Source: Lentinula raphanica
Taxonomy: Eukaryota > Basidiomycota > Agaricomycetes > Agaricales > Omphalotaceae
DNA length: 64,000 bases
Assembly (NCBI GenBank): GCA_027919835.1
Contig: JANVFP010000017.1
Span: forward strand, 248,001 to 312,000
Direction of reading: 5' to 3'
The notes beneath the pieces were generated by a model. The model had not been told where the DNA came from and made no database searches. It saw only the letters and a program-made list of their open reading frames with translations. This document shows, piece by piece, positions 29,843-59,924 of the stretch. Made by a program: the position numbers and the translations under genes. Position 1 is the first letter of the stretch; every line of letters begins with the position of its first letter.

Positions 29843-30300
29843 CACTACGCCACCAGGCAAATATATCATTTGGAAAAGGTTTCGGGAAAGGGCTTGCAAA
29901 TAATCACCTTTTGCAGTTCATTCTGGGTGTGTATAAAATCAAATATCCCTTTTGAGATAAGTTTTGAAAATAATTACCCTTTTCAGTCAAAAACCCGCCC
30001 TGATCTTGTTTTGGCAATATATGTTTTATATGTCGGTGAAAGAACAACTATGGCAATGTATTAATCAGGCATATAAATGATCAGATAATGAAGACTTTAT
30101 AAGAACATTATACTGACAATAAATCATGCCTTTATCCACTGAATCAGGAATTGAAATTCTTTGTTTTATTTGAAGGGAATTAATTAAATTATCTTCAGGA
30201 AAAACAAAACGGTCGATGGTCGGGACATGGTCGGGACATGGTCGGGACATGGTCAGAAGATGATCAGACGACTGGCTCCCTTTCAAGAGTCCATGCACTC
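29843..30300 (+). repeat. left terminal region of the CACTA element
   Basis: The 14-bp outer repeat is followed by sequence homologous to the right end. At 30218-30254 an 11-bp unit, GGTCGGGACAT, is repeated three times with a partial fourth copy. Short subterminal repeats of this sort are the usual TnpA/Tnp2 binding sites of CACTA elements. Confidence 0.7.
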
Positions 30301-31049
30301 CCCATCAACTTGCACTGCTCGAGCGATGCCGATTATAGGATGACTTTTTGGGCAATCAACAACCGATGTGTGGGACTTAGAAAAGCGATTGCATTACAAA
30401 ATCTTATAAAGTTCGAACCAAGTAGTACAGAGAATTCAAAGATACAGTGTGACGAGCAGTGAAACGCGCGAGTCAATGTAGGACTTCATTGACACGAGTA
30501 TGTACGGAAAATTTAAAAGTAGCGTAAAGATCAATTCAACGTCGCATTACAAGGCAAAACTAACACAGATCGAGTGGGGTACCAGAGGCAAGACCATGCG
30601 AGGAGTAACATCAGCCAGATAACCATCAAGAGCGAAAGGGAAAGATTGGTCCAAATAATGGAAACGCTACAAGCAGGCTGTGAATCAGCGGATAACCTTG
30701 GGCTATGAGATGCACAAAACGTACCTAGAGGTTGCACAAGATTCCCAACAAAATTCCCATCCAAAATTCCGGCGAAACTGCAACTCTGTTACATGGAATA
30801 AGCTGACGCGACGAAGCCCCGGTTGGAGGGTGTTGATCGAGAGAGCTGAAGACGCGGCTCAATTGGAGATCGACGTAATGAACGAATCGTTGACGGTTGT
30901 GCTGCTAGAGCGTTTGGTTGTTGCCCAACATCATCCTTGCGCGTATACGTTTTGGATGCAAAAGGGATTTGATCATTGCATTTGGGCAAGATACGACCTA
31001 GTCATTGAATGAATTCACTTGTATCCTTTCACGAACACATAGCGCACCT
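30301..31049. other. no gene recognised
   Basis: Open frames here (the longest is 110 residues at 30680-31012 on the plus strand) show no recognisable motif or clear splice structure. An 18-base match (AGAATTCAAAGATACAG and one neighbour base) recurs near 30430 and 31145. Confidence 0.4.
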
Positions 31050-31963
31050 TGTAAACCATGCCTGCAAAATAACTGCAATATAAGTCTAATACGCTATATC
31101 CTGCCGATGATAATAACGTACCTTCGTGCCGTGCCAGTTCCACAAGAGAATTCAAAGATACAGAGACGATTCCCCGCGGTATCTAAGCAGCATGGGCAGT
31201 TGACATTCCTCAGTTCAAACGATATATAATTCCCTTAGAAGGTTGAAATATCCTCACCAGAAACTCCATGCAATAGCCTGCCTGAATGAGCAAAGCTCGT
31301 CCCTCGAGCCCAAGACAGCGAGATATCAAGTACGCCTTTGAAGTAGCTTCAGGAATGAACCTTCGTTTGCTATAGAATGAGGAGACAGGAGGAGCTGGTG
31401 ATAATGACGTTCGGAAGGTTACTGGCAAACGGTGATACGATTTTGTAGAAGACTGCGCAGCCAGCAAAGCCTTGCCTAGATGAGGGGCTGGGCGTTTGCT
31501 GGCTGCAAGGAGTGGTGCTGAATGTACTAGAGCGCCCTGAAGAAGTGCTATGGGCAGTTGACATTCCTCAGTTCAAACGATATATAATTCCCTTAGAAGG
31601 TTGAAATATCCTCACCAGAAACTCCATGCAATAGCCTGCCTGAATGAGCAAAGCTCGTCCCTCGAGCCCAAGACAGCGAGATATCAAGTACGCCTTTGAA
31701 GTAGCTTCAGGAATGAACCTTCGTTTGCTATAGAATGAGGAGACAGGAGGAGCTGGTGATAATGACGTTCGGAAGGTTACTGGCAAACGGTGATACGATT
31801 TTGTAGAAGACTGCGCAGCCAGCAAAGCCTTGCCTAGATGAGGGGCTGGGCGTTTGCTGGCTGCAAGGAGTGGTGCTGAATGTACTAGAGCGCCCTGAAG
31901 AAGTGCTGGTAACTTAGAGAGTTGGTTTGGAGAAGATGACAACGTTGAGCGCAGCTTCCCCAC
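31050..31963 (-). CDS. unrecognised small protein gene, partly duplicated
   Basis: The minus-strand ATG at 31963 opens a 131-residue frame (MGKLRSTLSSSPNQLSKL...) rich in Ser, Ala, Leu and Arg with almost no acidic residues at the start, which would suit a mitochondrial presequence. An intron donor (CTG then GTGAGG) follows MEFL. Downstream on the same strand a likely small last exon reads MVYKVRYVFVKGYK before a stop near 31014. A perfect 358-bp tandem duplication covers most of the main exon, so the gene structure between the copies is uncertain. I do not recognise the family and cannot exclude that it is a broken captured host gene. Confidence 0.35.
31192..31907. repeat. perfect 358-bp tandem duplication
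   Basis: Bases 31192-31549 are repeated without any difference I can see in 31550-31907. The unit starts ATGGGCAGTTGACATTCC and contains most of the minus-strand open frame. Perfect identity implies a recent event or an assembly artefact. Confidence 0.85.
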
Positions 31964-32376
31964 GGTTGCGAATCGTGATTACATAAGCGTTCAACGGGTC
32001 TCGACTCTCCACGGGTTCATTCATGCATCTTATGCACGTACCCATACGACCCCGATTTCCTTATACTCTCAAAAAGCCGTATGCCTGGACAATAACCTTC
32101 ATCTGTCAAAATTTGTACCGTCGCCCCTTGTATTCCATTTGCAACGATTAGATCAAAGACATCGATGGCTCCTCAAATCCCCTTTGTGCTTCATCCTCGT
32201 GCTTCGGCTACACCGTTCCCTTGTTTCCAAAATCTTAAAAGCACCTTGCACGTCGTTCCGTCTAACTTCATTCCCTCGCTATATCTGCCACTTGCTTCTG
32301 CCATTGCAACCAGAATCCTTTCAAAGTACGTGTAAATGTTCACTTCTGTTAAACCATACCCTAACCGAGTTATAGT

Positions 32377-33322
32377 ATGCCTGCTACCTCCTCACCTCGA
32401 CAAATCACGGAAGCGCGTACCTCTGGGACGAGCTCTCCTTACCGTCCCCGTCTCATTACTTACAGCAGGAGGGACCAAAGAACAAAGAGCCGTCGTAATT
32501 TGTCAGGTTCGAGTTATGACGAACCGATGCTCATCTCCGATAGCGACGATGATTTTAAGGTGTGCAGTTTTCATGATACATGCTATTTGATAAAGGCTTA
32601 TCTTCGACCTAGCTTGTTATGAAGGAAACTTCTTCGAAGGGGAAGGGGAAGGGGAAAGCAAAAGCAACTACGCCAGAGAGTTTTTCGGACGATGATGTGG
32701 TTTTTATTAGTGGGCCTGCCAAGGTACGTCTCAGCCGATAGTCAGAAGAACAGCTTCTTATGTCCCTCAGGCAAGTTCTAGCCGTCAAACCGACGTCCAA
32801 GAAACGGGCGCTGTCAAAGATAAAGCCAAGGTTCGCGATTTGCTACTATTCTGCCCTCCATCCATATCTGAAATGTCCTCTCATTCAGAACGTCTTCGAG
32901 CAAATGTTTACGGACTTCTTGCGCAAACAAGAAGAGAATATGAGCTGCCAAATCTGTATGGAGATTGTCAACAATCCGCATGTGTAAGCTGTTACTATTA
33001 CCTCCCTCGACGCTTGCTCATATACGGTGCTAGCTTGTGGTGTGGCCATTTCTTCTGCGCTGAGTGCCTGACCGGACATGCCAAAGCTCTGGTTAAGCAG
33101 CGGGATAACCCTAGATGCCCTACTTGTCGCGTGATCCATGGCCGTTTCAAACCCGCCGAATCGTATGTTCTACGCGAGCAAGCCTATGATCTGCGACAGG
33201 CACTCCAAATTCCTCAACCTGAGCGTGGAAAGTTGAAGTGGCCTGAACAATTCATACCTACCGAACGCGATCGCGACGAACCTCTCCCATTCCGAATTCG
33301 TCCTACAGATACCTTGTTTTGA
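32377..33322 (+). CDS. RING-finger protein, putative E3 ubiquitin ligase
   Basis: Five or so exons starting at ATG 32377 give a basic Ser/Arg-rich N-terminus (SPRQITEARTSG) and acidic patches (LISDSDDDF, SDDDVVFISG). A C3HC4 RING then follows: SCQICMEIVNNPHV, and after a 50-base intron LWCGHFFCAECL and CPTCR. Spacing is CX2C...CXHX2CX2C...CX2C, complete for two zinc ions. The C-terminal 60 residues (RFKPAESYVLREQAYDL...) end RIRPTDTLF at 33322. RING proteins pass ubiquitin or SUMO-targeted ubiquitin to substrates; the SDSDDDF and DDDVVFISG stretches look like SUMO-interacting motifs, so a SUMO-targeted ligase is possible. It is cargo of the CACTA element, next to the coiled-coil gene that converges on it. 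Confidence 0.75.
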
Positions 33323-33545: not shown

Positions 33546-36500
33546 CTACTCCACATCCATAGCAGACCCCTCCTCAGCTGCTGTTGTGGTGCCACTTGTG
33601 TTTGGATTGTATCCTCTGAACGTAACTCGGTTGAAGCTGTATTCCGCCAACTTCAGCTCCATCAACTCGTGAGGGAACAGCGGCTCAAGGAATTCTTCAC
33701 GAAAAAATTCCCGAGGGAGGTCGGTAGGGGGCGACCGATGGCTGAGCTTGTTTGAGCGAATCCTAGGAATACGGCCGGCTCCTGCTCGATGGAAAATCAG
33801 TTTTTCAAGAACCGGTGCTTGACCCATTATGTTGAATAGATCATCGAAATCGGGATGTCGCCAATAAGACTGAAGGACGACCTTCACATTCTGCTTGACT
33901 TTGACACCCTCCACTTCTACTTCTCTAACGTCGTCCTCTTCATCGGACATACCGTTATCACCTAAGATCTCCGTCACGTTGAGACCATAAGACCAAAAAT
34001 CAACTCCAGACTGATCTCCACGCTCTCGACAAACTCCAATCATTATAGCAGCAATGTCAGCACGCGACGTCCGCTTCTACAGGGATGTTAGAGCAGTCAG
34101 AGGAACTAAAAGGATCAACTCACTACATGGAGAACGCTCCTGTTGGCGCTACGCATCTTCCGTTTGTCATGGTTTAAAGCAATACGCAGAACCCGGTCGT
34201 CATTGGTTTCGCCAGTTTGTGGACGCGCGTCGATGATGTCTTTGTAGATGCGGTAAAGTCGATCTTTGAACAGATCATCCCATTCAATCTTCTCCTTTTT
34301 CTTCCCGAAACGACCGTCTTTACAGTTGTCAACGATTTCGCGTGCTTTGAGAGCAAATTTATGAGCGAGCGCGCGGTTCCATGGAGATGCCTTCATTGAC
34401 TTCACATCAGCAGCGAATTTGTCAATCCGGGTGTTGCGCAGTTTTGGACCGTTGTTTATCGGATCCCGGATGAAATCTTCAATCTTCTTGAGCTCGATTC
34501 CATCCCTGGCAAAGATTGCCCAAATGCTCTGAACGTTGAAGGCTTCCTTCAATAAGTCTCGAGCAAGCGCCTGGATACATGAGTGAAATGGTGATTCAAG
34601 TCTTTCCAAGTGATGAGTGCTCACGTTAATGGTATTTTTGACAGTCTGCTTGCCCCCTTTGTTCCGGCCTGACTTCTCCCAACGTTTCTGCACACGGCTT
34701 ATGTCACTGGGCTCGTCGTCGTTGTCCAGAGGTTGCCTTGACTCTTGGTCCGATTCATCTTCATCTTCAGAGTCCATATCGTCGGCTGGGTTCTTGTTCC
34801 TATTTGGTGTGGGGACTTCCTTCTGCTTTCCTTTATCTCGAGTTCGACTGGTGGACTAGGTGACAAGATGTGAGAAACTTCTTGAGTTGTATCAGAAATG
34901 CGTCAACATACCGGTCTAGTTTGAGTAGAATCACCAGTGCCCGATTTATGAGGACCTCCATCCTCGTCTTGATCTGATTCGCCATCCAGATAGGTATCGC
35001 GTTCTCTGTCCTCCTAGACATGTAACGTTACAGAATGCGTGAGCGCTATGATCTTTTGGTGCAGAAGGCTTCCATCGCACCTCCATGGCATAGTTGGAAG
35101 TTCTTGGTTTATCCCATGGTTTCAAACGTTTCTTGGAACCCTGAAGCAAGAGTCCAGAAACAAGCTAATAGAATGCTCCGTGTACTTACATCGAGCCCTG
35201 CTGAGAAATCAGGTAGTCGCCATTCTGGATAGTTGGCACGAACACGGTTCAACTCTGCTTGTACCGGTGCTCTTGCCAGCGTACGACCCAGTCCGCCTAC
35301 AGACCGGAGATCGCGTAGAATATCCCCATTCAATGGACGTGCAGGTGAGAAGCCAGGTCCCGTTGCTTGACTTGGTTGAGGGCGAGGGTTTGACATTGAT
35401 GGCAATGGTGGTTGAGTTTCAGTTCGAGCTGAAGTTGAAGACGAGGGTGAGGGGGTAGCTTTTGGAACACCTGATTCACGAAGAGCCTGTAAAGATCGCT
35501 CAGCTGGGGGTAAGGAAGGAATAGGCATAGGCAATGACACACATACCTGATTTTCGCGCTCTAGTTTGTGGATCTTAAGGGTCTTCTCGAGGTTATCCTG
35601 TTGTAAAGCAGCTATCTGATCTGAGACGGTGTCGTTTACAGTGGTCTTTGCACCCGGGAGTTTCCCACGTAAGTTAAAGCCATGTACTAAGTCAAAGATT
35701 CTTACCGCCGTTGTCTTTTCCTAAGAGCAAAGATCAGGAGGTATCACACGACAAACACGTATATACGCACTTTCAGATTTTGGACAACCGATGCCAGACG
35801 ATCTCTCTCTTCCACGACTCTCTTGACCTCTTGAGATTTCTCCTGCAATTGGCGATTCAAGTCTTGTGATTCGGACGAAGAGTCGCGTTTCGTAGCCTGT
35901 TCGGAATAGTGAGTGACACACCGTAGTGCATGCCTTTCTAATAGAGGTGTCTAACCTGGAGTTCCTCTTGGACTCTCGAGAGATTTTCTTCCGCCTCGTT
36001 TAGCCGAGATTCCGTGCTTGCATGGGTGTCCTGAAGGAACGTCAGATTTTCAGCTACACTAGGAGGAATGAAACCTGCCTTCAAGCTTGCGTATCGTCCA
36101 GTCAACAAATCGAATCGGGGCTGCATTCAACCATGTTAGCATTTGATATTTGATTTTGAGTCAACTCTTGAACAATTACTCTCGCTATCCAGTGGTCGGC
36201 ACGAGTTGTCTAAACCATACTTTCTCCGTCAACATATCAAGCTTGATTTCCGAAAAAGGCTTAACTTGCCTCTAAATTGTTCTTCTCATTCTGCAATTGG
36301 TCGCGCTTCTGCTCTAGGTCACGACAAAGCTTCTCCTTTTCCTCAAAGCACCGCTTCCATTCCTCTTTCTCGTTGACTATCTGTTGATATGCACTCTATA
36401 CAGTTGATCAGCATAAGGAAGACGTCCGCAGTGTTCACTGACATTCGACTGTTCAGCCGATTGGGTATATTGATCATGCAGGCCTCCCTTTTCCGCCTTA

Positions 36501-39500
36501 AATAGGGTCAATAAAAGGGATCGACCAACGAGGCAACGGCTGGTTTCACGGACCTCCAATTGTTCAACTTTGTTCTCAAGTGTTTTACGATGCTCCTGGG
36601 CCTGTCTTAGGAGCTCCTGTATAGTTGCCAGGTTGTTCGAGCTCGAAGCATGGTTTTGCTGAAATTCTGTGTTAGTAGCCTCACACTCTTTCTACAAGCA
36701 TACTTAATGAGAGCGCAGCAATCACGAAAATGGATGACACACCTGCAAACGATCAATTGTCTGACGCTGTTGGACTACTTCTCCAGAGAGTGCTTCTTTT
36801 GTGTTGGAAAGTTCCGCATTGAGGCTAAGTGCGTCCTGCACTTGGTCGTTCAAAGTGGCGATTTGAACCTGAAAATAGTTTATGAGATCAGTTGGAGAAA
36901 AACATTTACTATAATGCCATACACCGAGGTCAGCGGACTCTAGCTTATGCTTCTCGAATTCTTCTGCAAGCCGAATCTTCTCGTCCGAAGTTGTCCTCAA
37001 CTGGGCAGAGGCCTGTTCCAGCTGAACAGCCAATTGCTTGCGAGCAGTCTAGGCACTCGTCAGAGAAAGAAAATGATCACACAAACTCATGACATACCTC
37101 TTCATCTTGGATCTTGCCCTGCAGAATTTGCCTCTGACTCTCGAGTGATTCAGTAAGTTTCTCGTATTTCTCCTATGATTGCGCCCCATTCAGTTTGGAA
37201 GTCTTCGGCCATAAGCAAACAAGATGGAGAGAACATACAGTAAGATTATGAAATTCACCATCAGCTGTACGCTTATGCTTCTCGAATTCTTCTGCGAGTC
37301 GAATTTTCTCGTTCGAAGTTGTCCTCAACTGGGCAGAGGCCTGTTCCAGCTGAACAGCCAATTGCTTGCGAGCAGTCTAGGCACTCGTCAGAGAAAGAAA
37401 ATGATCACACAAACTCATGACATACCTCTTCATCTTGGATCTTGCCCTGCAGAATTTGCCTCTGACTCTCGAGTGATTCAGTAAGTTTCTCGTATTTCTC
37501 CTATGATTACGCCCCGTTCAGTTTGGAAGTCTTCGGCCATAAGCAAACAAGATGGAGAGAACATACAGTAAGATTATGAAATTCACCATCAGCTGTACGC
37601 TTATGCTTCTCGAATTCCTCTGCGAGTCGAATTTTCTCGTTCGAAGTTGTGCTCAATTGGGCAGAGGCCTGTTCCAGCTGAACGGCCAATTGATCGCGAG
37701 TGGTCTAGGCGGCCGCGCTCGTCAGAGCAAGAAAATAATACACAAGGAACTCATGGCATACCTCGTGATCTTGAATCTTGCCCTCCAGACTTTGCTTCTG
37801 ACTCTGCAGTGATTCAGAAAGTTTCTCGCATTTTTCCTATGATTGCGCCCCGTTCAGTTTGATGTTATTCGGCCATAAGCAATCGAGATTGAGACAACGT
37901 ACATTAAGCTCACGAATTGTGCTGTCAGCTGTATGAGCATTCTGAGCAGCCTCAGTCGTAAAGTTGGTCAGCTGTGTCTGCAAGTTGTGAGCCGTCGCTT
38001 CTGAGGCCGCATGGCTCTCCTTGAGAGTTGATATTTCTGCTTTTAGTCCTTCAATTTCGGTTTTTTTTTTCCCAAGTGTGGTATTCTCATAAGAGACAGA
38101 ATCAGCTTTGTAGGTGACCGAGCTCATGGTATAGCAACTTACAAGTTGAAGTTCATTTGCAACATAAGAATCATCCAATAATCTTTGTAGTCTGCCAATC
38201 TCTTGCTCTTTCTCTTCCTACGAACCAAGCATTGTATCGAGGTTTTTCTTGAAATACCATGAATCCAATGACTCACAAGCTTTAACTGATTCCCGCTGTT
38301 GGCGTCGCGTAAGCTTTGCTTGAGTTTCTCAATCTCAGCATTCTGTTGTATATATCAGAGATTACCCATCTGAACTTTCCAAGAACTGACAGTGAAACGG
38401 AGACTCACTGATTGTGTCCCAGACGAGCGAGCAGTTTCTTCGAGTTGACTTTGCATTTTGTCAAGTAACAACTGCTTTTGCCGCTAAACTTTACGCCTGA
38501 GCTGCATTATAACCAGGGATTGATGGCCATGACCCACCAAATCTTGTTCGAGAGTCTCCACTTTCTCATGCGAATCTTCCCCAAGCTTTTGATGCTGAAG
38601 CTGGTATGAATAGAGTCATGATCAACATTGCATACGTTAGAGAGACATGACAAACCTGTAAAGCGGCGTGATCTTCCTTGAGTAAATCGAGTTCATTCCA
38701 TAGTTGTGTATTGGCTTCCTCCAGTTTATTTTTGTCCGCATCCGATTTCTCGACTAGCTGGTCCAGCTCGAATTGGATTTCTTCAACGTCCTCGAACAAT
38801 GAGTCCTTCTTCTCCCGCACCCGGGAAAGCTCTTGCCGAAGCTCTTCCAAGTCAGTAGATTGCCCGGTAACAGTGGCATGAATCTCTTTCTTCTCTTCCT
38901 CAATGACTCTGAAACGCTCCTTCAAAGATGCATGTTCAGCTTCCAGTTGCTCATTGGAAGTCTGAAAAATAGGTCAGTTGCATATAAAGTCGAAATAAAG
39001 CGATTCCTAAAATCACCTTGATCTTCTTATTCTCACTCTCAACGACTTTGAAACTTTCCTGTAGAGATGCATAATCGGTTTGAAGCCGCTCGTTGGATCT
39101 CTGGATGATACATCGGTCAAGCGCGAGTTTGAGAGATATTCGTTGCGTTCACCTTAAAGCCCTTCTGCTCGTCTTCAATGGCGGCGGCACTCTCTTGCAA
39201 GGACGCACATTCAGCTTGCAACCGCTCATTGGAACCCTGAACGATACATTAGTGAAACGTGCATTCAGCATTATCAGTGAGGTGAACCTTCGAATCCTTG
39301 ATAGCTTCAGTAAGTTCCGTGTTACATTGTTCCAACGACCGGACCTGAGAGCGATATTGGTGGCATTCGGCCTAGAATTGTCGGTAAGCAAATGTGGATA
39401 GGATATGAGACCTTGCAAGACCTACTTCTAACGAAGCGATGAGTTTGTCGTGATCCCTTTTAACCTGCTTAGCCCTCTCCGTCTCCCGGTTTGCATCCAA

Positions 39501-39726
39501 TTCCAGCTTCTCCAATTGCGCCTTCAGTTTCGTAGTCTTTGCTGTTTCAACGGTAATCTGCGCGGTCAGCTGACGAATTTGTTTTTCCTTTCCCCAGGCT
39601 TCCTCTTCGAGTTCTTTAATCCTGTCGAAGCCTTTCCGTTTCCGAGGCTGGTTATCGGTACCGAATAGAGATTGGACACGGAATTCGGAACTAGTAGGCA
39701 CCGCTGACTGATTTGCACTGAACATT
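33546..39726 (-). CDS. very long coiled-coil protein with conserved C-terminal region
   Basis: From ATG 39726 (MFSANQSAVPTSSEF) leftward, more than twenty short exons encode almost continuous heptad coiled coil (RIKELEEEAWGKEKQIRQL, LKAQLEKLELDANRE, ELRQELSRVREKKDSLFE). A Ser/Pro-rich stretch (near 35400), an acidic linker (SEDEDESDQESRQPLDND) and a conserved C-terminal region follow: MKASPWNRALAHKFALKARE, WDDLFKDRLYRIYKDII, NVTEILGDNGMSDEEDD, ending SAMDVE at 33546. That C-terminal region is paralogous to the protein at 39996-41295. Whether all exons belong to one transcript is uncertain; I joined them because donors and acceptors keep the frame. Two exons are triplicated (36940-37700). The coiled coil suggests a scaffold or filament-like role, which is inference. 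Confidence 0.55.
36940..37700 (-). repeat. 328-bp tandem repeats carrying coiled-coil exons
   Basis: A unit encoding AVQLEQASAQLRTTS followed by EKIRLAEEFEKHK occurs three times at a spacing of exactly 328 bases (GCTGAAC at 37021, 37349 and 37677). Introns are included in the unit. The first two units are almost identical, while the third and its neighbour (to about 37860) are more diverged. Successive exon duplication has lengthened the coiled coil in phase. Confidence 0.8.
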
Positions 39727-39995
39727 GTAACACTTATGATAAACTGCATGTTACATACATCAATTTCCATAGACTGGGTGGATGGTTGAGCAGTGATCCT
39801 GGTCTATGAAATTCTGTTGGAAGAGAGTGGGATATTGGACAGGAATGACATACTGAGCCGCGTATTGTTTCCGTTGAACTCTGCATTGATACATCCGACT
39901 ACGAGAAACAGCGCCCAGTAAGTGATCCACTGTAGGAATGAAAGAAGAGAGTACACACATTGGTTATCGTCAAAATGTTTCTTGTTGAGGTGGAT

Positions 39996-41295
39996 ATGTC
40001 CATTGCATTATCGGTGGACTCTCCTTCCGCCTCCATGGCGGAAAACAAACTGGAAATGAAAATTAGCGCCTATGAAAACGTGTTTGAGGTATATAAGCGC
40101 TCGCAGGAGCTCCTCGCCCGTCAGTCGCCCGTTACTCTTCCAATTCTTCCACGACCTCATTTCTAGTCTCAACGTCAACACTCCAAACATCAGTACCTCT
40201 GGCGAATACTCTATGTATGTCCCTCTATCTGATGAGGAAGTCAGCTAACTTTCTTCGATGTTAGGCCGTATACTGAAGCTGAAATTCGCCGTCATGTCAA
40301 TGTTCGTGAATCACTCGATGCTGACTAGGGATGCACTCAAACAACATACGTACAGAAGCTGATTCGAACAGTGATGGGGGACTATATACAGATTACCGAC
40401 GATTGGCAAGATTTCAGCGTCGCTGCTGAAGACCTAGGCCGTTTTCTTGCAGATCCTCACTCGTATACTCTTGAACTAAAGCCGGGCATCAAACTGGATA
40501 CCAGTGCCAGTATGGCTGGTGATATGGGTCACTCCCCTTGGAATCAAACCGTGGCCCTCGTTCTAGCTGCTAAAGCTGCCGAACTTGCTGTCGACAATCC
40601 AGAATATTATGGACCTACCCAACCACTCAACGAATGGGCCGCTATGTTCAACGCACGGCTGTACAAAATATTCCTCACTGTCGCGAAAGCAAAGAATGGA
40701 ACCTCAGATTTCGAATACGAAGTGCGCAAACAGCAGAGCAAACAACGAAGACTCCGTCAATATGTATGTATCTTACCCACCTCCTCCGGGTTTTGACTTA
40801 CCATTATCATTCAAGACGCATGAACGACGAGTGCAAATCGCCACAGTGATGATCACAGTGATGGAAAGTCTCAACAACGAGGCGGAGTATATGTGCTGGT
40901 CTGAGATACTCTACTCCCTTGACCAGTTGGGTGTCGCAGGTACTTCTGATAGCGAAGAGATACTGGATACTCAGGGACAGCAGGGAGTAGCTGTCTATGA
41001 GCCGAATTTCCGACATGCCTGGTTCCGAACGTTGTTTCATGAAGTTGATCGTGTTCCTCAAACCGCGTCATCTTTGTTCTCCAAAGTTGGACGCAAACGA
41101 CTTCCCAGAATTTCCGGAACTGAGCGGGTCGAGCGGGCACCTCCAGCGAATCTTCCATCTTCGTACTATCGATCCGAATACTTAGAGAGGATGAGGCAAG
41201 GCCTAACTCCAACAGTCGCTACCACAACCGCAGGGCGACCACTTCCCAGGTCCGTCAATTCAAACTGCGTTCGAGAAGGTTACTCATCACAATGA
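39996..41295 (+). CDS. lineage-restricted protein paralogous to the coiled-coil gene C-terminus
   Basis: Exons from ATG 39996 (or ATG 40035, MAENKLEMKISAYENVFE) lead through LLFQFFHDLISSLNVN and RPYTEAEIRRH to GDYIQITDDWQDF, then SPWNQTVALVLAAKAAELA, LNEWAAMFNARLYKIFL, WSEILYSLDQLGVAG, RKRLPRISGTERVER and LPSSYYRSEYLERM, with a stop at 41295. The order of motifs (SPWN...A-x-KA-x-E, W-x-x-x-F-x-x-RLY-I, LPRI, PP-x-x-LP-x-x-YYR) is the same as in the C-terminal region of 33546-39726. The two genes are divergently arranged, 270 bases apart. I recall similar proteins of unknown function in many basidiomycetes. No catalytic motif is evident. Confidence 0.6.
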
Positions 41296-41585
41296 CAGCC
41301 TTCCGGATGTCAAATCTATACTAGCCCAGCTGGAAGATTCTTAACCAATAAAGCATTTTGAATTAATCCTTCGTAGTTGTTCGTGGTACGAGGATCGTCG
41401 AATACTACGTTATTCATACAGTGAATCATCGTGAAGAGAATTATATGGGATGTATATGTCTAATCCAGAAATGAATATTTGGAACGGAAATAACGACAGT
41501 CTGCAATCGGATCAAGCTTTTCGCTGAGTCTAGTAGCGCCCGGATAGCGCTGTAAGTAAGCAATTGAGACCCACTGACATACTAC

Positions 41586-41970: not shown

Positions 41971-42252
41971 AAATGTCGTCCGGAGATTAGACTCATTGTT
42001 CTCGAACAGCGCGTTCTACTTACATGACGCTCTGAAACGGAGCTTGCGATGTGGTGCATTCCCATAGTTGATGAAAATGGATATCGGCTCGAGTGGCAAA
42101 GGAAATGCGTAGGAGGGATCTGGAATTATGGAAATTCGCGACAACTCATGTTCTTTTATACTGGAGGTTTGAAGGTTTCCCTTTGTATGAATTTTCAATT
42201 GATGTTCCCTTTGTTGTTTGTATTTTCGGCTGCCCACTTCGTCTTTTACTCT

Positions 42253-42306: not shown

Positions 42307-42310
42307 CATC

Positions 42311-50200: not shown

Positions 50201-51842
50201 CTGAGGAACGCCGGGAGCTCATGGAGAATCTCGCTGGTTCTATGAATTATCACGCTGCAGCTAGCGTTGGTAACATCCATCGTCTTCTCCAGCAGCCTTT
50301 GATACGAGGTCAAGAAGATGATCTATGTAGTGCCCTCATGCATTCAAGCGGAGATGCTCTAGCCTATGTTTGTACAGATATTCAGCGACTCCCGGCCGAC
50401 CGATTTGCAAAAGATGATCTGGTGAATGAGCTCATTTTATGGGTGCGTATTCTCTTTTCAGCATCAAAACTCAATAAATCATCCATACTTCGTAGAGATT
50501 GGAAAAACCCCTGGACCCAATGGTCGCCCTCAAAATAGACTCCTCGGCCCTTCTCAAACGAGTTCAGCGGATAGTACGTGAAGCAATAACACCTTCATGG
50601 ATGGCAAACCCACCTGCAGACGTTGGACTTGCAAAAGCGGGAACGCTCAAGGCTGACCACTGGCGCTGGTTGTTTGCTGTTCATGTACCACTAGCTGTCT
50701 TGAGTCTGTGGCGAGACAGTTCTCCTTTGGCTTCTCCAGATGCTCAGCGTATGAATTCTGTGGTAGAGACCACAATGCACCTGAGTTGCGCCTCATTGGT
50801 GATGACCAAGCGTAGTCTCAGTCTGGAACGGCGCAATCTTTACCGTCACCTTCTACGTTTGCATGTTCTTGGTCTCAGGCAAGACTTCCCGGGTTGGATT
50901 TTCCCAAGCCATCATCTTGCTTTCCACATTTTCGATGGCATGGAAAATTTTGGTGGAGTCCGAAATTGCTGGGGATTTCCTTTCGAGCTGACAATTGGAA
51001 AACTTCAGTGTATCCCCAATAACCACATATCAGGTACGTGACTGTGTCTCAACGGCATTGAAATCTTGTCGAAATCTTTCTTAGGTCAATTCGAACGGAC
51101 GATGCTTCATTCCTTTTGCAAAGGTGCCACCTTCCGCCAGTGGCTTATGCGTTCGGACGCTCCGCCAATTCTCCGCTACTGCCTCGAACTTGTCAATGCG
51201 GCTTACAACTACCGTCATACACCAAACGCTCCTTCGAACAACTCTTCGACTGCCTCTTCTGATGTTTCGACTACAGCGGACGTTGCTGATACACTTGACT
51301 CCGAATTACTCACGACAGCATTCGTCGGCTATAACCTTGGCTCACCGGACTCCAAACACAGAATTCCTTCCCCCCCTATTCTCACAAAGCTTCTGGGACA
51401 AGAGCCATTTGAATGCTATTCTCGTGTTCCCGGATCAAAGGGATATTATACTATTCCAAAGCAGGGTGCAGTAGGAAACAGCTATATCTGCTTTCAGTCT
51501 CAGGGTAGATATCGACCTGGACAGCCGTGGAAGGCCGGTCAAATCCAACATATCTTCAAGAAGACTCCCTCGGGACCGCTTCAAGTCACTATCCATCGCA
51601 GTCAGGCTATCAATATTGCGCAGCCGTTTTCCGATTTTTTTGAACATGGTTTCGAAGCTGCTTTGTTTTCGACGGAGTTTTCGAACAATCTCGAGGTGCT
51701 GAATTTCGACCAGATAGCCGCGCACACTGCTCGATGGAACCTCACTGATGACTTGGTAGCGGTCGTCAACTTATGTATGGTGAGTAGACTTTGTGCAGAA
51801 CTATGGCATGTCTGAACCCACTCGAACACTGAACAGGACTGA
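44209..51842 (+). CDS. CACTA transposase, Tnp2 family
   Basis: ATG 44209 (MPSYAELMATLKVEQ) begins an N-terminal region of about 300 residues. Then come CPDCSCTYAPSYP and CGASLLSYGKP, with cysteines typical of fungal Tnp2, and FEYYPFFDWFGKFIAL. The catalytic core has WFFILNADFFNVEG (probable first Asp), GMLAMTCLNLPLEIR, YIYIPGIIQGPQEP, LKPLIDDLLVGYTRG, SCLGRTDYENWRKMD, LWRLPYWKPSSQCVVDPMH (probable second Asp), KADHWRWLFAVHVPLAVLSL, CWGFPFELTIGKL and QFERTMLHSFCKGA. It ends after a last intron at GAC TGA (51842). An intron at 46893-50055 contains foldback copy 3; without it that intron would be 50 bases. I saw no stop or frameshift, so the gene may be functional. The product cuts and joins CACTA ends. 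Confidence 0.85.
46919..50024. mobile_element. foldback element copy 3 (3106 bp), in a Tnp2 intron
   Basis: It has the same structure as copies 1 and 2 but diverged from them by perhaps a tenth. Ends: CACAGGATACAG at 46919 and CAGTATCAGCTG at 50024. The 7-bp duplication CCTTATA flanks it (46912-46918 and 50025-50031). It lies wholly within an intron of the CACTA transposase, so the reading frame is preserved if the 3163-base intron is spliced. The arms are complementary over more than 1.3 kb and would fold in the transcript. Confidence 0.85.
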
Positions 51843-52026
51843 CTCAAAGCGTCCTCTCATCGAAGCGAGGTCTTTCTTCTTTGTATATTCACTCGTAGAT
51901 AACAAGCATCGATCATATCCATTCATTATATGAAGCAAGGTGTATACAAACAATGAAGCATTATGGAGATTCGTAACGTCTACTAGTAGTACTACTACTA
52001 GTGCCAAAATTAGAGGATACAAATAA

Positions 52027-53013
52027 TCACTTATTTCGAGAGGCACGGGTGCGATCGCGAGCATTGCTAGGAGTCTCGGTGAGAGGACGAGCTTCGGCTG
52101 CGAGTTTCTCCAATTTCTCTTTCTTGATGACCGTTTTACGATATTTCAGATGGTTACGAATGAAATCGTCGACAACCCAGAGCCCGCGATAGTCTTTCAG
52201 AAATATGAACTTCTCAACGGCCTGTGATTCCTATCCTCAGCATTGTGTATTGGGTATGGTTAGTTCAACAAACATACCTGAGCCCTAACCTTCTTAACGC
52301 TTTCCAACGGCTGGTCGCTCATAGGAGCAGTGCAATCTAAGTGCTTCTCTACGAGGTCATTGATGAAAAGCTACAGTGATACGAAATCAGGAAGTCATCA
52401 TAAAGTAGAAAGTACGAGAACATACCTTGACCTTATCATATTTCTTCTTGGGCCATCCTAGAACAGGGAATAAGGAATATCCTCCACGGTTTGGCCTTCC
52501 TACCTCCCCAGGAGGCTTAGGAATCAAAAGGTCGTCGTCGTCTGAATCTTGCTCAAACACAAGAGCAGGTGGTCCACGTTCGCGTTTCGGGGAGACAGCG
52601 GAAGTAGCCTGGAGCGAGTCGTTGTCGAGGTGAGAAGACGGCTTCGAAAGTGTTGGAGTGCCATTCAATCGGGAGTGAGTGGTTGGAGTACTGCGATCGC
52701 TATCGCTGTCATACTCGGGCGAAGGCTGATGAGGGAGAAAGCGAGCCAAGTGGCCGCGTTCACGACTCGAGTCGTATTCGAACTCGCTAGAAAAACTAGG
52801 AAAGGAACGAAGGGACGAAGTACGCAGAAACACTGCAGGTGAGGTTTGGGGATTTCGAGGAGGGCTAGGTGAGACACGATGGGTTTCTTTCTGGGTACGC
52901 TGGGGACCAGATGAGGGCAAGACAACGGCTGCATCAGCAGCCAGAGAGGGAAGGCGCATCTCTTCGTGGTCAGAGCAGAGAGGTCGAAGATCAAAGTTGG
53001 TGTAGATGTTCAT
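52027..53013 (-). CDS. unrecognised Ser/Pro-rich protein
   Basis: A TATATATT site on the minus strand near 53040 precedes ATG 53013 (MNIYTNFDLRPLCSDHEEM). The first exon is disordered and rich in Ser, Pro and Asp (SPPRNPQTSPAVFLRTSSL, QDSDDDDLLIPKPPGEVG). Two further exons follow, separated by about 50-base introns: LFINDLVEKHLDCTAPMSD and AVEKFIFLKDYRGLWVVDDF, ending ARDRTRASRNK at 52027. The Trp-containing C-terminal segment is the only part that looks folded. I recognise no family with confidence. It converges on the transposase gene and is divergent from the WD40-like gene starting at 53299, with about 285 bases between the starts. Confidence 0.55.
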
Positions 53014-53298
53014 GGTGAGAATGAGGAAGAGGAACTTGGAATGCATAGAATATATAGGTAACGACCGCCCTTTGAACCTCATTTGCATTGTTGGAACAAG
53101 GGTGAATGTTGAAAGAGGAGCCTCATTCCTAGGCGGAGTATGATCGGGAGATGAATGTACGGACCGGACCGGCCTTTCTTTGTCTGTCGAGAAAACAAAC
53201 ACTTCCTTCTTCTGACCTCAACGTCTCTCTCTCCGACTGGAACCCAACAAAATATCCCTTGATTCAATTCGTCACGACTTCGAGAAATCTGCCGAAAT

Positions 53299-56200
53299 AT
53301 GGACTCGGAATACCACCAGCTCTCCAGGTTGACAGGTCCACGAGACGCTGTTCTTTCTCTTGCCTTTTCAGCCAAGGCGAAATTCCTGTCGGCTGCAGGT
53401 ATGTCTTCTTGGCTTCCATTCTCTCGCTACATGATACAAAATTGCATCTAAGGCTACAGTGGAGTTTTTGTATGGGATTTGTCTGACTCTACTACATCTG
53501 TATCGACACCTCTTCCCCATATGCTGTTCGCCCCGCAAAACCCGAGATATGTCATAACCGCCTCAGCTTGGATCTATTTTCAGAAAACCAAACGACATGT
53601 CCTCATCATAGGCTCCATGAGAGGTGATATTCTGCTATGGGAGTGGACGGAGAAGACCAAGGTACGTTCCTCAATGCAATATGATCTTTCGCTGACTTAA
53701 AAGCTGTAAAGGCTTTCAATCTTCTTTACAGAGTTACGCCAATCGACGACTCTCTGGACGAAATTCTGTCGATCGATATACACGAACAAGATGTCGCGTC
53801 TGGTCGAATAGGAAGAGTCGTTGCCTCGACGTCAAACCGCCTTGTTAGCGTGTGGACCTTAACCTCTTCTGGAGAGTTTTCTAAAGTATTCACAATCACC
53901 CTGGATAACCTCAAGCCGAAGACTGTACGTATGTGCAAGACAACACGAGACATCTTTGTCTTTCCATTATACGGTGGCGAAATGTACAGCTGTAGCTGTA
54001 ACTCCTACGCATAACAAGTGGGCAACTGCCTGAGGCCCGTTTTGCATAACAGTGGGGCACTAACCCACCCACTCAAAACCTATATGGGGGGCGTATAGGA
54101 ATGGTCCTACCGGCTCCTCGGCATGCTTACCTACACTCACTGCATATATGGGGGCTCGAAAATGGCTTCGGCGCTGGCTCGGCATGCTTACGTTTCACAG
54201 TAATCCTTCTTTTTTTCTCGAATTAATTTTAATTCCAGGTTACTTGGGCGCTTACCCAGGTTACCTCTCATCACCTACCTCTACGTATCCCATGCCCTCT
54301 GCTATCTCTTCTGACGGTCTCAACGCTGACACCGGGGATCCATCCGCTACCTCTGGAGGCAGTACACCTGCTGATACCGACTCTACAATCACTGCGTCTG
54401 CTCACGTTTCTGAGGATCCACCACGTCCCCGTTCCCCATCCTCCCAAAATACTCAGACAGAGAATAACGCAGCCACTCAGCAACTGTCGACTCCAATTCC
54501 CTCAAAGAAGAAACGAGGGAACCAGGGAAAGTTTCAGGGCCCTCAGCTGGAATTTCTGCAGTCGCGTATTGACGCGTACCTCGCTCTCTCGACCAGGAAG
54601 GAGCGCGGTGCTTGGATCATGAGCACGACTCATGAGTATTTCCAGAAGTTTCCGTGGCATAACACGTCGGAGCCAGCTGAATTCGCTATCCTTCGTGATT
54701 CTAGTGCTTCCCTCTCCGACCAACAGCGTCAGGACCTAGAAGCTGCACGCGACGACCTTCTGTGTAAGACTGTTAAACAAGGACAAGCCGTGAGTCACAC
54801 CTGTAGTTCCTTTGTCTCTCAGTGATCTCATTTTTTACCAGGAACTCAAGAACTGGATTCATCGCCAAACTCAACGACCTGCTCAGAGGAATGGCGGCGA
54901 GGCGTTTAAGCAGATCAATAACCAACTGAATCAAACTACGAAACTGAAGCGACCTCGTCGTAAACCTGACTACAAACATTTCATGTCCCATCCCGAGTAT
55001 CGCGACCAATTTCAGAAGCATTATCAAGACGCCACCGCCGATAATCCTCCTTCCAAGGCTGAACGTATAAAAAAGCAATGCGAGCTGGCGGAAGAACTGT
55101 ACAATCAACAACCAGATGACGTTAAGCAGAAAATTGCCCTCGAGAACTCTACTCAGCATTCGTCTCGGGTCTCCGCCTTCAAGAAGTTGATTTCTGGTGA
55201 CGGTTTTTCGTTGGAAGGAGTCGATGACCTTACGGAGGCTGAGAAACAACTGTACGTCTCTTTTTCTCTCCCTTACACCTGAACTCACCATCAGTCAGGT
55301 GTCGTGCAAATCTCCTTACTTTTATTCAACCTCTCTTGGATGCAATCCGGGCTCATACCGGCTTGTGGCTAACATTGCTTGCTGGGGCGCCACCCAAAAA
55401 CACTGACGATCCCAAAGCTGACTTCGCCGTGCTCGCGTAAGTCTTATTCATTTGTGCTGCAACAATAATTCACGCCTTTTTCAGAATTAGCTCAGGGACC
55501 GTAGACGGTTTGAAGTTCCACGAGTGGAATTCTGATGACTTCGGGGAGAAGGTCATGAATTCATTCTTGCTTTTTTTGCATGCTGCTACTGGTGCGAGCT
55601 TTGAATTCACTTTTATATTTGTGTCCTATGATATCGCCTGTCAATGGCATAAACACGTTATCCAACGCGTGAAATCCCTTCCATCGTTAGTCGCATGCAA
55701 TCTCGGTCTTCAAAAAATCAAGTTCGCGATCCCAAAACTCCATATTCATGGACACCAGCTAGGCTGCCAACTCAAATTCTCTCTTAACTGGCTTTGGGGA
55801 GCAGGGAGGACGGACGGTGAGGGTGTTGAACGACCGTGGGCACATTTGGGACCTATGGCGAGCAGTACTCGAGACATGGGTCCGGGTTCTCGTCATGGAA
55901 CCATGAACGACCACTTTGGTCATTGGAATTGGGTGAAATTGATAGGCCTCGGTAAGTAGATCTTTTCTCAATGCCCTTGTTCTTCCTACTCATACTCATT
56001 CACAACCATCCAGGCGCTTTGCTACGGAAACGTCACCAAGTTGCTATGAAGGAGCACCACATCCAGAAAGAGTCGCTCCGGGAATTTACGCGAGGGAAAG
56101 GCGTCGAGACCGTCCAGTGGAAAAAGAGGATAGAGGATTGGGAAGATGATCAAGATCGGCCTGAGCGAGAACGTACATTCTCGAATCCGTATGAACTACC

Positions 56201-59194
56201 TAAATCAGGTGTGTAATCTTTCCTCGTACTCAAGTTCTATCTGATTCTCATTCTAATAGGTTTAACTGAGCACGATGTTCGATTGAGGCTATCTGAAGAG
56301 GAGGCACGGCAAGCGCAGAATGGATCATTCTCGTTACACGAGGTTGGCCCTACAGCTTTCATGTCACAGTTGCTAGAACTGGAGGACCAACAGTGCGTTT
56401 CGTTCGGCTGCATATCGCGTGGTTTTTGCTCATATTTGTCCTTTCCAGACGAAGTCTATCACTCGACGTAATCGCAAAGGCGTTCGAAACCTCAAGTCAG
56501 AAGACAGCGTTGATGGAGCGACGGACGAAGCTCATGCGTCTAATGGGCCGTATTCGTTCTATTCAAGCGTTGTACATGCCCTCCGCTATACATCTCCTCG
56601 GACAACGCAGGGTGGAGGGCGAGGAACATGTCGAAAACATTCCCATAATCTTTCCATCGAATCTCACCGCTGAAGAACGTTCTTCTGGATGCCACGAATC
56701 TCTTGTGAAGATTGAGGAGCAGCTTCGGGAGGCACAACTCCGTGGCACACTTGACAGCCTTCGCAATCACCTCCATATGAAAAGTCGACTCCTCACTTAC
56801 CGAAAGTCCAACGTCAAAGCGCAGTCGACGATAACAAAATCTCAGGCTCTCTTGAAACGAAATCAGAAACAGATCGATTCGGATGCGCATAGGTACAGGA
56901 CAGCTTGGTCAGCTCTCGAACGTATTCGCGGCTCTGGTAATAGTGGATGGAATCAGTTAAAGTCTTCGGATGTGAGGATGATGGATGGAGGAGAGGATCG
57001 GGCGCTGGGGATGGAACGAAAACGGATCGGTAGGAAGAAAAAGGAAGCTGAGGCTGCCGGGCAGGCCTCGGAATCCAACATTCTTGATTTGTGCGACAGA
57101 AATCCAGCAGACGCCGAAGAAATCGATGACCGGACATCACTGCAACGCGCTCGAAATGGAGTCGGGGAAGGGTTCCGAGAAACATCTTGGATATGGAAGG
57201 AGGGAGGGAACGGGAATCTGATCGATAACGAGGCGTTGGAGGAGTTCATGCGTGTAGAATGGAGCAAGGCTTACAGTCGTGTGCAGAGATGGAGCGAAGA
57301 ACTGGGCCTGATTGAAGAGGAGAGACGTCGTGTACTGGTAACCCTCGAACACGAAGCGCTACAGTGGGAAGGACGGCAAGTATATGAAGGTCCCCTGGCG
57401 GCAACATCCACCGATACACATCTCGAGGGGGTTCGAGCATACGCACTTTCACAGGCACATTTATATCGACAAATTGCATGGAATTTTCGTAGGATGTGGG
57501 AGACATCCGATTCGTCTGAAGAGGTGGAGGATCTTGAAGAGGTCGGGGAAATGGACTCGGCTTCGGAGGACGAAGAGGAAGACGAGGCAGGTATATTCGG
57601 AGAGGATGACATTGCTGATGTTCCGGATGAGTAGACCCCATGTTTTTGTTTTTTGATATTGGACAGGTAGTCGCTATATATTTGTGTTTTTTGGACAATA
57701 ATCACTGTTATTTTCATTCGTCGCTCACAATATTGGCTACACGTCGAGGTCGGACTAATTTTTTAATGAGAACATAAAATTACTCAGTTGCCGAGAAGCC
57801 GGTTGAGGGCTACCACACGATTATGCGAAACTTGATGTGCCGAGTAGCCGGTTGAGCAATCCCAACCGCCCCCATACAACCTAAGCATGCCGAGGAGCCG
57901 GTAGGCCCATTCCTATACGCCCCCCATATAGGTTTTGAGTGGGTGGGTTAGTGCCCCACTGTTATGCAAAACGGGCCTCAGGGACTTGCCCACTTGTTAT
58001 GCATAAGGGCTACAGCTACAGGTGAAATGTAAGCTGCTCTCTGTTCATTCTCGTCTACTTATTTTTAACGTTGTCATTTTCCTAGTATAAGACTAGACTA
58101 TAAAACAGGCGCAGTGAAGAGCCGCAAATCTCCTGGTCCTGGAAGAATGTACGTTCCAAAGTACAACGTTCCCAATTCTTCGACATACTTATCACCACTT
58201 AGGGGTTCGGTTGCATTGAATCATGCAAGCGATAAGTTTGTCGCTTATACTGGAAAGAACTTTCAGCTATATCGCCTCGGTAACCTAGAGATTTTGAAGA
58301 CCTTCACTGCCGAAGCACCTGCGGTTCTCTATCCTAAGCAAGTCGTGTTTGGGGAGTCGGAGCGAGTCATAGTTGGAGGAACTGATTGTGGTTGCGCCCT
58401 TGTGTATGATGTAGAAAGCGAGGGAATCATTCAAAAACTCGGCTATCCAGCTGGAACTCTTGTTCAACCCGTAACAGTATGTCTTGCTCTCCTCCTTTCT
58501 GCAACCAGAGTTGACTGACGAATTCAATCAGACTTGCACCCTTCCGGGGCGACATTTAGTTGCCATAGCAGGTTCTACTCAAGAACAGCCTGCAGACGTC
58601 ATTCTCTTCGAAAAGCTCTTTCCTCAGGACGCTACTCGAGCTCTTTCGCCTCTAGGAGATCCTGACACTGTCAACTGGATCGATACGCCGGATCACAACG
58701 AACGGCCTGTTTTAATTGGTTTCTACATGCCTAAGAGAATCTGGAAACGAGTTTGGATCACCTCACTTCTCTGCTTATGTGTGGCGTTGTATCTGGCAGT
58801 CCCCAACAATCTCGCTCAGGTTGGTCTATCCTCGGGCTTTATCATGTGTTGTGTTCTGAGAATTTGTTCACAGATCACCGCTTCTTTTTGGTCTAGTGCT
58901 TCTCAGTTGGCAACTGAGTCCAAAAAGCCGAATCACAAACCGCCGTCTGCCTTCAAACCTCAGGCCCCGTACGTGATCCAAACAACGGTTTATGTTGAGA
59001 GAGGCGCTCTGGAGACTTCAAATACTGTGCACAAGAAGGCGTATGTCGACCCAAGTTCTATGGATAGTCCAGACTCCATTCAGAAGAAGGTCCTCGCGAA
59101 AGCAACGTACAAAGATCGTACTGGCCGGAAGGGGCAGGGGCACGATGACCAAAATGGGTTGCGAGAAATTGTTACGAAAGTAGGTGGACCTTGA
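53299..59194 (+). CDS. WD40-like repeat protein with a C-terminal membrane segment
   Basis: ATG 53299 starts MDSEYHQLSRLTGPRDAVLS. Repeat-like blades follow (AKFLSAAG, then YSGVFVWDL; IIGSMRGDILLWEW; RVVASTSNRLVSVWTL; IFVFPLYGGE; then IIRLDYKTGAV; SDKFVAYTGKNFQLY; VIVGGTDCGCALVYD). One hydrophobic stretch, VWITSLLCLCVALYLAV, follows near 58760, with a hydrophilic tail (HKKAYVDPSSMDSPDSIQ) ending at 59194. The blades would form a propeller used for protein contacts, and the last segment could anchor it in a membrane. A KDZ derivative lies at 53988-58023, exactly at a splice donor. The flanking exons remain in frame (GGE at 53978 to IIRLDYK at 58086) if the intron is spliced. It is the last cargo gene of the CACTA element. 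Confidence 0.6.
53988..58023 (+). mobile_element. 4036-bp KDZ deletion derivative
   Basis: GAAATGTA flanks it on both sides (53980-53987 and 58024-58031), a perfect 8-bp duplication. Terminal inverted repeats of about 145 bases (53988-54140 and 57880-58023) begin CAGCTGTAGCTGTA on the left and ACCTGTAGCTGTA on the complementary strand at the right. The two ends share AAAACCTATATGGGGGGC. Subterminal copies of GCCGAG-N-AGCCGGT lie inside both ends, most clearly at 57789-57905. It carries a single gene joining the partner protein to the KDZ C-terminal half. The terminus and gene match KDZ element 1 best, so it is an internally deleted relative of that subfamily. Confidence 0.88.
54292..57634 (+). 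CDS. in-frame fusion of KDZ partner protein and KDZ transposase C-terminal half
   Basis: The 5' half (ATG 54292, MPSAISSDGL; KKKRGNQGKFQGPQLEFLQ; FPWHNTSEPAEFAIL; PDYKHFMSHPEYRDQF; LLTFIQPLLDAIRAHTGL) is the partner protein, close to the copy at 18542-21736. At about 55590-55620 the exon passes without a stop from FLLFLHAATG to FVSYDIACQW, the KDZ core, and continues through IPKLHIHGH, GRTDGEGVERPW, MGPGSRH, the long helical region and an acidic tail ending ADVPDE at 57634. All exons keep frame. It lacks the partner Trp-rich domain, the CxC2 cluster and the DACFRLKR segment with the first catalytic Asp, so it should not be catalytic. It keeps end-proximal parts of both proteins. Whether it is expressed is unknown. 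Confidence 0.8.
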
Positions 59195-59480
59195 ATTTGC
59201 ATTCGGTAGAGTACATGTCTTGTTTCACTGTAAGCGTACTCGCATGCGCCGCAAGCAGAAGTGCATCTTTTGCCACCCACCCATACTATTGCAACCAAAG
59301 TAATCCAGCTGCATAATGAATCGCAAGTTGTCGTTAGCCTCAGGTATCTCCGTTGAATTCTTCATTGACTTGTGAGAAGTTCTTGGAAGTTCTTGTAAGT
59401 TGGGGAACATCATGGCCCGAGTTCTGTCCCATTATCGGCGTCGCCCGACGAGGACAAGATCATAGGGAGCTCATAGCCAG
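59195..59480. other. no gene recognised; 3' flank of the WD40-like gene
   Basis: This stretch lies between the stop of the WD40-like gene and the right terminal region of the CACTA element. I see no open frame with motifs and no repeat. Confidence 0.4.
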
Positions 59481-59924
59481 TCAAGGGGGAGCCACTCGTG
59501 TGGTGATTTCCCGCTCATCTTCCACTCATCTCCCGTTCATTGGCCGTTCATTGGCCGTTTTGTTTTTCCTGGATATATTTGAATTAATTCTACTTAAATA
59601 AAATAAAGAATTCTGAAACCAATTTCAGACGATAAAGGCAAACTTTATTCTTAGTGTAACTATTTGGGAAATGATCCATAATGCAATCCTTGATTCATTC
59701 GATGTAATAGTGGCAAAAAGTCTTCTTTTATACAGGTATAAGACATTGTTACCCAAAACAAAACCCGTATGGGTTTTTGACCAGAAAAGGTGATTGTTTT
59801 CAAAATCTATTCCACATGGAATATTCAATTTTATTTGAGCCGAAAATGGATGGCAAAAGATAATAATTTGCAAACCCTTTCCCGATACCTTTTTCAACCG
59901 ATATATCTGGCTGGTGGCGTAGTG
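59481..59924 (-). repeat. right terminal region of the CACTA element
   Basis: Read on the minus strand from 59924, it aligns with the left end from 29843 over several hundred bases (AAAAGGTATCGGGAAAGGG, AAAACC, GGAAAAACAAAACGG). Near 59530-59560 an 11-base unit (minus strand AACGGCCAATG) is repeated twice with diverged neighbours. Its sequence differs from the left-end 11-bp unit, although spacing and position correspond. Confidence 0.7.

What the first reader, a model, noticed from the sequence alone, without database searches (positions are those of the whole stretch)
29843..59924. A 30-kb CACTA transposon carrying at least seven non-transposase genes
Seen: exact 14-bp CACTA inverted ends, TTA duplicated on both sides, more than 300 bp of related inverted terminal sequence, and a Tnp2-type transposase that appears intact. 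Excluding two later insertions, the unit is still about 22.9 kb. It includes a RING protein, a huge coiled-coil protein and its paralogue, a Trp-rich-domain protein, a WD40-like membrane protein and others. Known: CACTA elements can capture gene fragments. Inference: this one carries whole, apparently intact genes as cargo, in a way that recalls the giant cargo elements of ascomycetes but with a different transposase. It is the strongest candidate here for an undescribed system.
Basis: partly seen in the sequence, partly recalled or inferred. Interest (0 to 1): 0.92.

Follow-up and report, generated by a model that had tools for sequence, protein, structure and literature searches.

The report
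Gene-rich giant CACTA transposon in mushrooms
A mushroom that is probably a shiitake relative carries a recently mobile jumping-gene unit of about 23 kb with a transposase and seven other genes, which recur together in related units and look like parts of the element itself rather than stolen host cargo.

Summary
The unit at 29,843-59,924 is real and mobile: exact 14-bp CACTA ends, TTA duplication, and an empty site elsewhere in the genome matching the joined flanks at 899 of 900 bases with one TTA. Without two later insertions it is 22,948 bp. Three more complete family members (22,486, 22,551, 21,877 bp) have their own 3-bp duplications and the same gene order. In the three fully compared copies all eight genes show purifying selection (dN/dS 0.1-0.4). 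A second family with other ends has the same set in another order; its one bounded copy is 37,439 bp. Of 25 loci with a related transposase (38% identity or more), 25 have a partner gene within 35 kb and 22 have at least four of six partner families; of 13 more distant Tnp2 loci, two have any and none has four. The host is probably Lentinula raphanica. This is an old lineage of giant CACTA elements with a conserved, modular gene complement. What the seven extra genes do is untested.

The parts
29840..29842 (.). TTA target-site duplication, left
   Evidence: single TTA at the empty site
29843..29856 (+). left terminal inverted repeat CACTACGCCACCAG
30211..30262 (+). left subterminal array: five 11-bp-spaced RRNNNATG units (369, 380, 391, 402, 413 from the end)
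32029..33295 (+). gene A, RING protein (window exons mapped from the C24 model; 5' part uncertain; one stop in the window copy in the C24 frame)
   Evidence: (PF13445 E 2e-8)
33546..40347 (-). gene B, long coiled-coil protein with a C-terminal domain paralogous to C (many predicted introns, partly uncertain; four stops in the window copy in the C24 frame)
40217..41350 (+). gene C, paralogue of the B C-terminal domain, no Pfam match (small 5' exons overlap those of B and are doubtful; one stop in the window copy in the C24 frame)
41464..42290 (-). gene D, small conserved protein, no Pfam match (annotated relatives about 160 aa)
42202..43884 (+). gene E, coiled-coil N-terminus plus Trp-rich C-terminal domain (5' exon overlaps D, so at least one of the two starts is wrong)
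44096..51832 (+). gene F, Tnp2-type DDE transposase, seven predicted exons, one intron holding insertion 1
46924..50019 (.). later insertion 1: AT-rich foldback element inside a predicted intron of F
52007..53412 (-). gene G, no Pfam match, divergent from H (5' exons of G and H overlap and are doubtful)
53279..59167 (+). gene H, WD40-like protein with a hydrophobic stretch in its C-terminal third (judged by eye); one predicted intron holds insertion 2
53987..58024 (+). later insertion 2: 4-kb transposon with 143-bp inverted ends and a KDZ transposase domain
59516..59556 (-). right subterminal array: four 11-bp-spaced RRNNNATG units (369, 380, 391, 402 from the end)
59911..59924 (-). right terminal inverted repeat
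59925..59927 (.). TTA target-site duplication, right

Best explanation
The unit is one copy of an old lineage of giant CACTA (EnSpm, CMCT-group) DNA transposons. The DDE transposase F moves the whole unit by its CACTA-type ends with a 3-bp duplication (ends, duplications and empty sites are shown; that F does the work is inferred from its family and conserved residues). The seven other genes are a conserved complement of the element, inherited and reshuffled with it, not recent host capture (recurrence, purifying selection and co-occurrence are shown). Inferred only, at perhaps 0.35: the coiled-coil and paralogue proteins (B, C, E), and perhaps D, act like a TnpA that binds the 11-bp-spaced subterminal arrays and brings the ends together, while the RING protein A and the WD40-like protein H act on the host cell in the element's favour, for instance on protein turnover or silencing. 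The confidence given is for the lineage reading.
For: Ends and TTA. Relatives on C11, C24, C28 with duplications CTA, TGA, CTA. Empty sites: window copy at C20 899/900 and C33 623/624, C24 at C4 898/900, each with a single duplication copy; looser, gapped matches for C11 (C39, 512/633 columns) and C28 (C21, 589/776). dN/dS of C24 against C11: A .34/.96, B .35/1.2, C .18/1.02, D .18/.84, E .26/.95, F .12/.97, G .08/.25, H .07/.48. Second family: C22:826276-863714, duplication AGG, order C F G H D E A B. Co-occurrence: of 25 related F loci 25, 24 and 22 have at least one, two and four of six partner families within 35 kb; of 13 distant Tnp2 loci 2, 1 and 0. D lies divergent to E within 5 kb at 12 of 15 D loci, G to H at 17 of 31 G loci. 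In other species, D and F records sit on contigs of equal length (61,946 in L. aff. detonsa; 19,791 in L. lateritia), and 3 of the 70 transposase relatives are annotated with RING gene A in front. Subterminal 11-bp-spaced motif: all four offsets 369-402 in six of eight ends, three in C24 right, two in C24 left.
Against: No function of the seven genes was tested; models of D and C were poor (mean pLDDT 47.7 and 45.4). The tnp2 match is below Pfam's cut-off. Identity of partner genes tracks that of F for E (rho .57, n 19) and H (.68, n 19) but not significantly for D (.34, n 10) and G (.19, n 17), so genes are also exchanged. Most clusters have no mapped ends: only five copies are bounded, one of them in family two, and that one has no empty site. 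Some genes have stops in the C24 frame: B 7 in C11 and 4 in W, A 1 and C 1 in W, F 1 and G 1 in C11, from decay or wrong intron calls. The array offsets are shared by descent and are not independent. No expression data. Partner genes outside Lentinula were not found.
Confidence: 0.9

Rival explanations
1. Starship-like cargo: a CACTA element picked up host genes and carries them as passengers that serve the host.
For: Whole genes, not fragments; RING and WD40-like folds are common in hosts (the second half recalled). E's Trp-rich domain also occurs in long ORFs without a nearby F (C50:100256, C17:316824, C35, C13).
Against: The set recurs in two families with different ends and at 25 of 25 related transposase loci; D is never and G, H and B/C are rarely found alone; no captain recombinase among the eight products.
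Confidence: 0.06
2. Chance: two CACTA ends from different insertions bracket unrelated genes, or TE-rich regions merely cluster unrelated elements.
For: Some clusters span up to 50 kb with duplicate genes.
Against: Matching TTA and empty site 899/900, four copies of like size and order, and distant Tnp2 loci mostly lacking the genes.
Confidence: 0.01
3. The gene set is the remnant of an integrated virus or virus-like element that adopted a CACTA transposase.
For: A compact set of mostly orphan genes, variable order between families, recombination between copies.
Against: No capsid, polymerase or packaging domain among the Pfam hits; many predicted introns.
Confidence: 0.03

Closest known systems
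CACTA / EnSpm (CMCT group) DNA transposons
   Same: CACTA-type ends, 3-bp duplications, residues fitting D-D-C(2)C-H(3)H-E (group features read in PMC12730594 section 10), subterminal repeats (recalled as a CACTA trait).
   Different: Eight genes in about 22 kb; the review PMC6431247 speaks of 'the usual 1-2 ORFs' (passage).
Large EnSpm families of the red alga Chondrus crispus (16-20 kb, 4-5 ORFs)
   Same: Oversized CACTA with several ORFs (passage in PMC6431247).
   Different: Fewer ORFs, another kingdom; homology of the extra ORFs was not tested.
20.5-kb CACTA of soybean (PMC2613891; title and abstract start in the listing only)
   Same: Size.
   Different: Gene content was not read or compared.
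TET-encoding fungal EnSpm and Plavaka transposons (PMC12730594; abstract, sections 10 and 18, passages)
   Same: Fungal CMCT elements with an accessory protein gene.
   Different: The accessory gene is a TET/JBP dioxygenase; none appears among the Pfam hits of A-H. Plavaka ends (TGT or CATCA) differ.
Starships
   Same: Giant, gene-carrying, mobile in fungi; also reported in a basidiomycete, Tremella fuciformis (eight elements; passages of PMC13066641).
   Different: Classified by a tyrosine recombinase (PMC12134995, abstract start in the listing); here a DDE transposase with CACTA ends.

Membership tests
CACTA/EnSpm | 5'-CACTR terminal inverted repeats | tested here: met
   CACTACGCCACCAG in W, C11, C24 and CACTGCGGCCCGAC in C22; the C28 copy departs (CACCGCGCCACCAG)
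CACTA/EnSpm | 3-bp target-site duplication | tested here: met
   TTA, CTA, TGA, CTA, AGG in five of five bounded copies; two copies with empty sites holding exactly one duplication copy
CACTA/EnSpm | Tnp2-type DDE transposase with C(2)C and H(3-4)H | tested here: met
   D483, D587, C606/C609, H1137/H1141, E1180 are each identical in all, or all but one, of the rows with a residue there, in an alignment of F with 20 relatives; their role as the catalytic set is inferred. Pfam tnp2 E 9e-4, below cut-off
CACTA/EnSpm | subterminal repeats | tested here: met
   11-bp-spaced RRNNNATG at 369, 380, 391, 402 in six of eight ends, three and two of them in the two C24 ends
Starship | tyrosine-recombinase captain gene | tested here: not met
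   no such Pfam match in the eight gene products at E 0.1; the stretches between genes were not scanned for it
KDZ | KDZ transposase domain PF18758 | tested here: not met
   found in the flanking transposon and in insertion 2, not in F
Plavaka | TGT..ACA or CATCA..TGATG ends | tested here: not met
   ends are CACTA; end types from PMC12730594 section 18

The most novel reading that the evidence does not exclude
A separate, ancient class of giant, gene-rich, modular DNA transposons in mushrooms: a CACTA transposase with a fixed set of about seven mostly orphan partner genes that are needed for transposition or for overcoming the host, reshuffled between families like modules of a phage, and forming a cut-and-paste counterpart of Starships.
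Probability: 0.45. Interest if true: 0.87.

Novelty: new variant of a known kind. Interest (0 to 1): 0.76.

Why it matters
It shows a cut-and-paste transposon lineage keeping a gene set of virus-like complexity under selection, with a recent jump and empty sites that make it directly testable, in the genus of a cultivated mushroom. It asks why a CACTA element should need seven partner genes, a question that the two-protein Spm model (recalled) does not pose.

Tried and rejected
Structure prediction of D and C gave low-confidence models (mean pLDDT 47.7 and 45.4), so no fold search was run. Profile searches of solved structures gave nothing for D and C (best E 0.35 and 0.4) and a weak WD40-protein hit for H (E 0.004). 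NCBIfam gave nothing for C, D and one family-two transposase, and a RING-region hit far below its cut-off for P0022. The one-mismatch search for the ends gave 21 matches against 16 for the reversed-pattern control, so its 13 extra places were not followed. A first gene-model script failed. A motif count with the wrong spacing (GGNNNNATG) missed the subterminal array. C46 and C58 looked like further copies but share the left flank of C24. No empty site was found for C22. Searches with C and D found only Lentinula records, the window's own protein and two unnamed 'lgn' records. Nine paper searches (open PubMed Central subset, judged by listed titles and abstract starts, lists often capped) showed no paper on this element; the 2014 PNAS paper on KDZ transposons is not held.

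Rows dropped or merged: exon matches of one gene at one place were merged by hand: F 54 rows to 41 loci, B/C 57 to 40, H 96 to 31, D 21 to 15, E 35 to 34, G 59 to 31, A 35 to 29. In one search three of the 41 F loci, fragments, were left out (C10:13614, C44:20121, C28:601586). The random control (partner loci near F: means 0.8-2.4 against 12-33 observed) places loci uniformly and does not model TE-rich regions; the distant Tnp2 loci are the better control. Identities were copied by hand for 22 loci.

Full report
What is there. The window holds one transposon from 29,843 to 59,924, with exact 14-bp inverted ends and TTA on both sides. It spans 30,082 bp, of which 3,096 and 4,038 bp are two later insertions, leaving 22,948 bp.

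Other copies. The own genome (49.06 Mb, 75 contigs) has the 14-mer eight times. Six of the eight are the ends of three complete elements: the window copy, C11 (22,486 bp, CTA) and C24 (22,551 bp, TGA). The other two, at the ends of C46 and C58, repeat the left junction of C24 and are not counted. A fourth member on C28 ends in CACCGCGCCACCAG, with duplication CTA and 21,877 bp. W, C11 and C24 are 69-76% identical over aligned columns and mosaic: W is closest to C24 around the 3' end of gene B (93-94%) and to C11 in the transposase, while C11 and C24 are closest to each other around gene G (93%).

Mobility. Flanks joined with one duplication copy were searched and aligned. The window site exists empty on C20 (899 of 900) and C33 (623 of 624), with one TTA. 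The C24 site exists empty on C4 (898 of 900), with one TGA. C11 and C28 have looser matches with gaps at the junction, which support but do not prove the exact duplication. C22 has none. The window copy lies between an ORF with a CxC2 domain and an ORF with a KDZ domain, that is, probably inside a KDZ transposon. The near-identity of the empty C20 stretch makes the insertion recent (inference). Whether the two insertions were there when it last moved is not known.

Genes. Eight gene models were built on C24 with weights from conservation across copies: A RING, B coiled-coil with a C-terminal domain, C paralogue of that domain, D small, E coiled-coil plus Trp-rich, F transposase, G, H WD40-like. 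Pfam supports A clearly, F and H weakly. The first small exons of the divergent pairs B/C, D/E and G/H overlap and are doubtful. All eight show dN well below dS in all three pairs (ratios 0.11-0.39). Some models have stops in other copies, B most.

The set is old. Searches with A, C, D, E (Trp-rich part), F, G and H in the own genome gave 36 clusters with two or more of the seven families and 23 with four or more; some are near-identical copies of each other. Of 25 transposase loci with at least 38% identity, 25, 24 and 22 have at least one, two and four of six partner families within 35 kb; of 13 loci at 27-35% identity, 2, 1 and 0. D-E and G-H are often divergent neighbours (12 of 15 D loci; 17 of 31 G loci). 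The C query finds both B and C, so these two count as one family.

A second family. C53 and C57 share a left end, CACTGCGGCCCGAC, with 98.7% identity inside and unrelated flanks outside. This 14-mer occurs eight times, with one complete pair: 37,439 bp on C22 with duplication AGG. Only its two end stretches were read, so later insertions in it are possible. Its order is C F G H D E A B against A B C D E F G H in the window (hits). Its transposase is 46% identical to that of C24.

Host and range. D occurs in L. lateritia, L. aff. lateritia, L. aff. detonsa and L. edodes records. Linkage of D and F in two other species is inferred from equal contig lengths.

How it works. Shown: CACTA-type ends, 3-bp duplications, empty sites, a transposase with residues fitting the C(2)C and H(3-4)H pattern that PMC12730594 gives for the CMCT group (section 10), and an 11-bp-spaced subterminal array (background about 0.8-0.9 GGNNNATG per 900 nt in the interior of C24). 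Inferred: TnpA-like end binding by B, C, E or D; host-directed roles for A and H. The function of the seven partners is open.

Known or new. Oversized CACTA elements exist (Chondrus, passage in PMC6431247; soybean, listing), fungal EnSpm elements can carry a TET gene (PMC12730594), and Starships have been reported in a basidiomycete (PMC13066641, passages). An eight-gene complement kept across CACTA families did not show up in the nine searches named under Tried and rejected. Hence: new variant of a known kind, with a bolder reading left open.

Noticed in passing
window 4971-8083, 11864-14937 and 46924-50019: A family of 3.1-kb AT-rich foldback elements (33% GC). The first two are 99.9-100% identical over long blocks, the first with 1,332-nt arms that are 100% complementary; the third, in the transposase intron, is about 88-89% identical to them.
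   Followed up: partly
window 46923/46924 and 53986/53987: Both later insertions lie inside short predicted introns (C24 16601-16649 and 20594-20650), although predicted introns are about 16% of the element (3,622 of 22,551 bp).
   Followed up: partly
window 28678-29136 and 59923-60339: The element lies between a CxC2 domain and a KDZ domain, probably splitting a KDZ transposon; the 900 bp around the site exist unsplit on C20 and 624 bp on C33.
   Followed up: yes
window 36943-37933 and 31192-31849: Tandem repeats of about 328 bp inside coiled-coil gene B and an exact 300-bp direct repeat (spacing 358) upstream of gene A.
   Followed up: no
G000 C17:316824, C50:100256, C35:248305, C13:1315316: E's Trp-rich domain also occurs in long ORFs (over 600 aa) away from the transposase, perhaps its source or another mobile family.
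   Followed up: no
P0067 (Schizophyllum commune): A transposase record whose N-terminus matches a GmrSD restriction-endonuclease domain, perhaps a fusion or an annotation join.
   Followed up: no
window 1765-3660: ORF with a retrotransposon gag domain (PF03732, E 1e-8).
   Followed up: no
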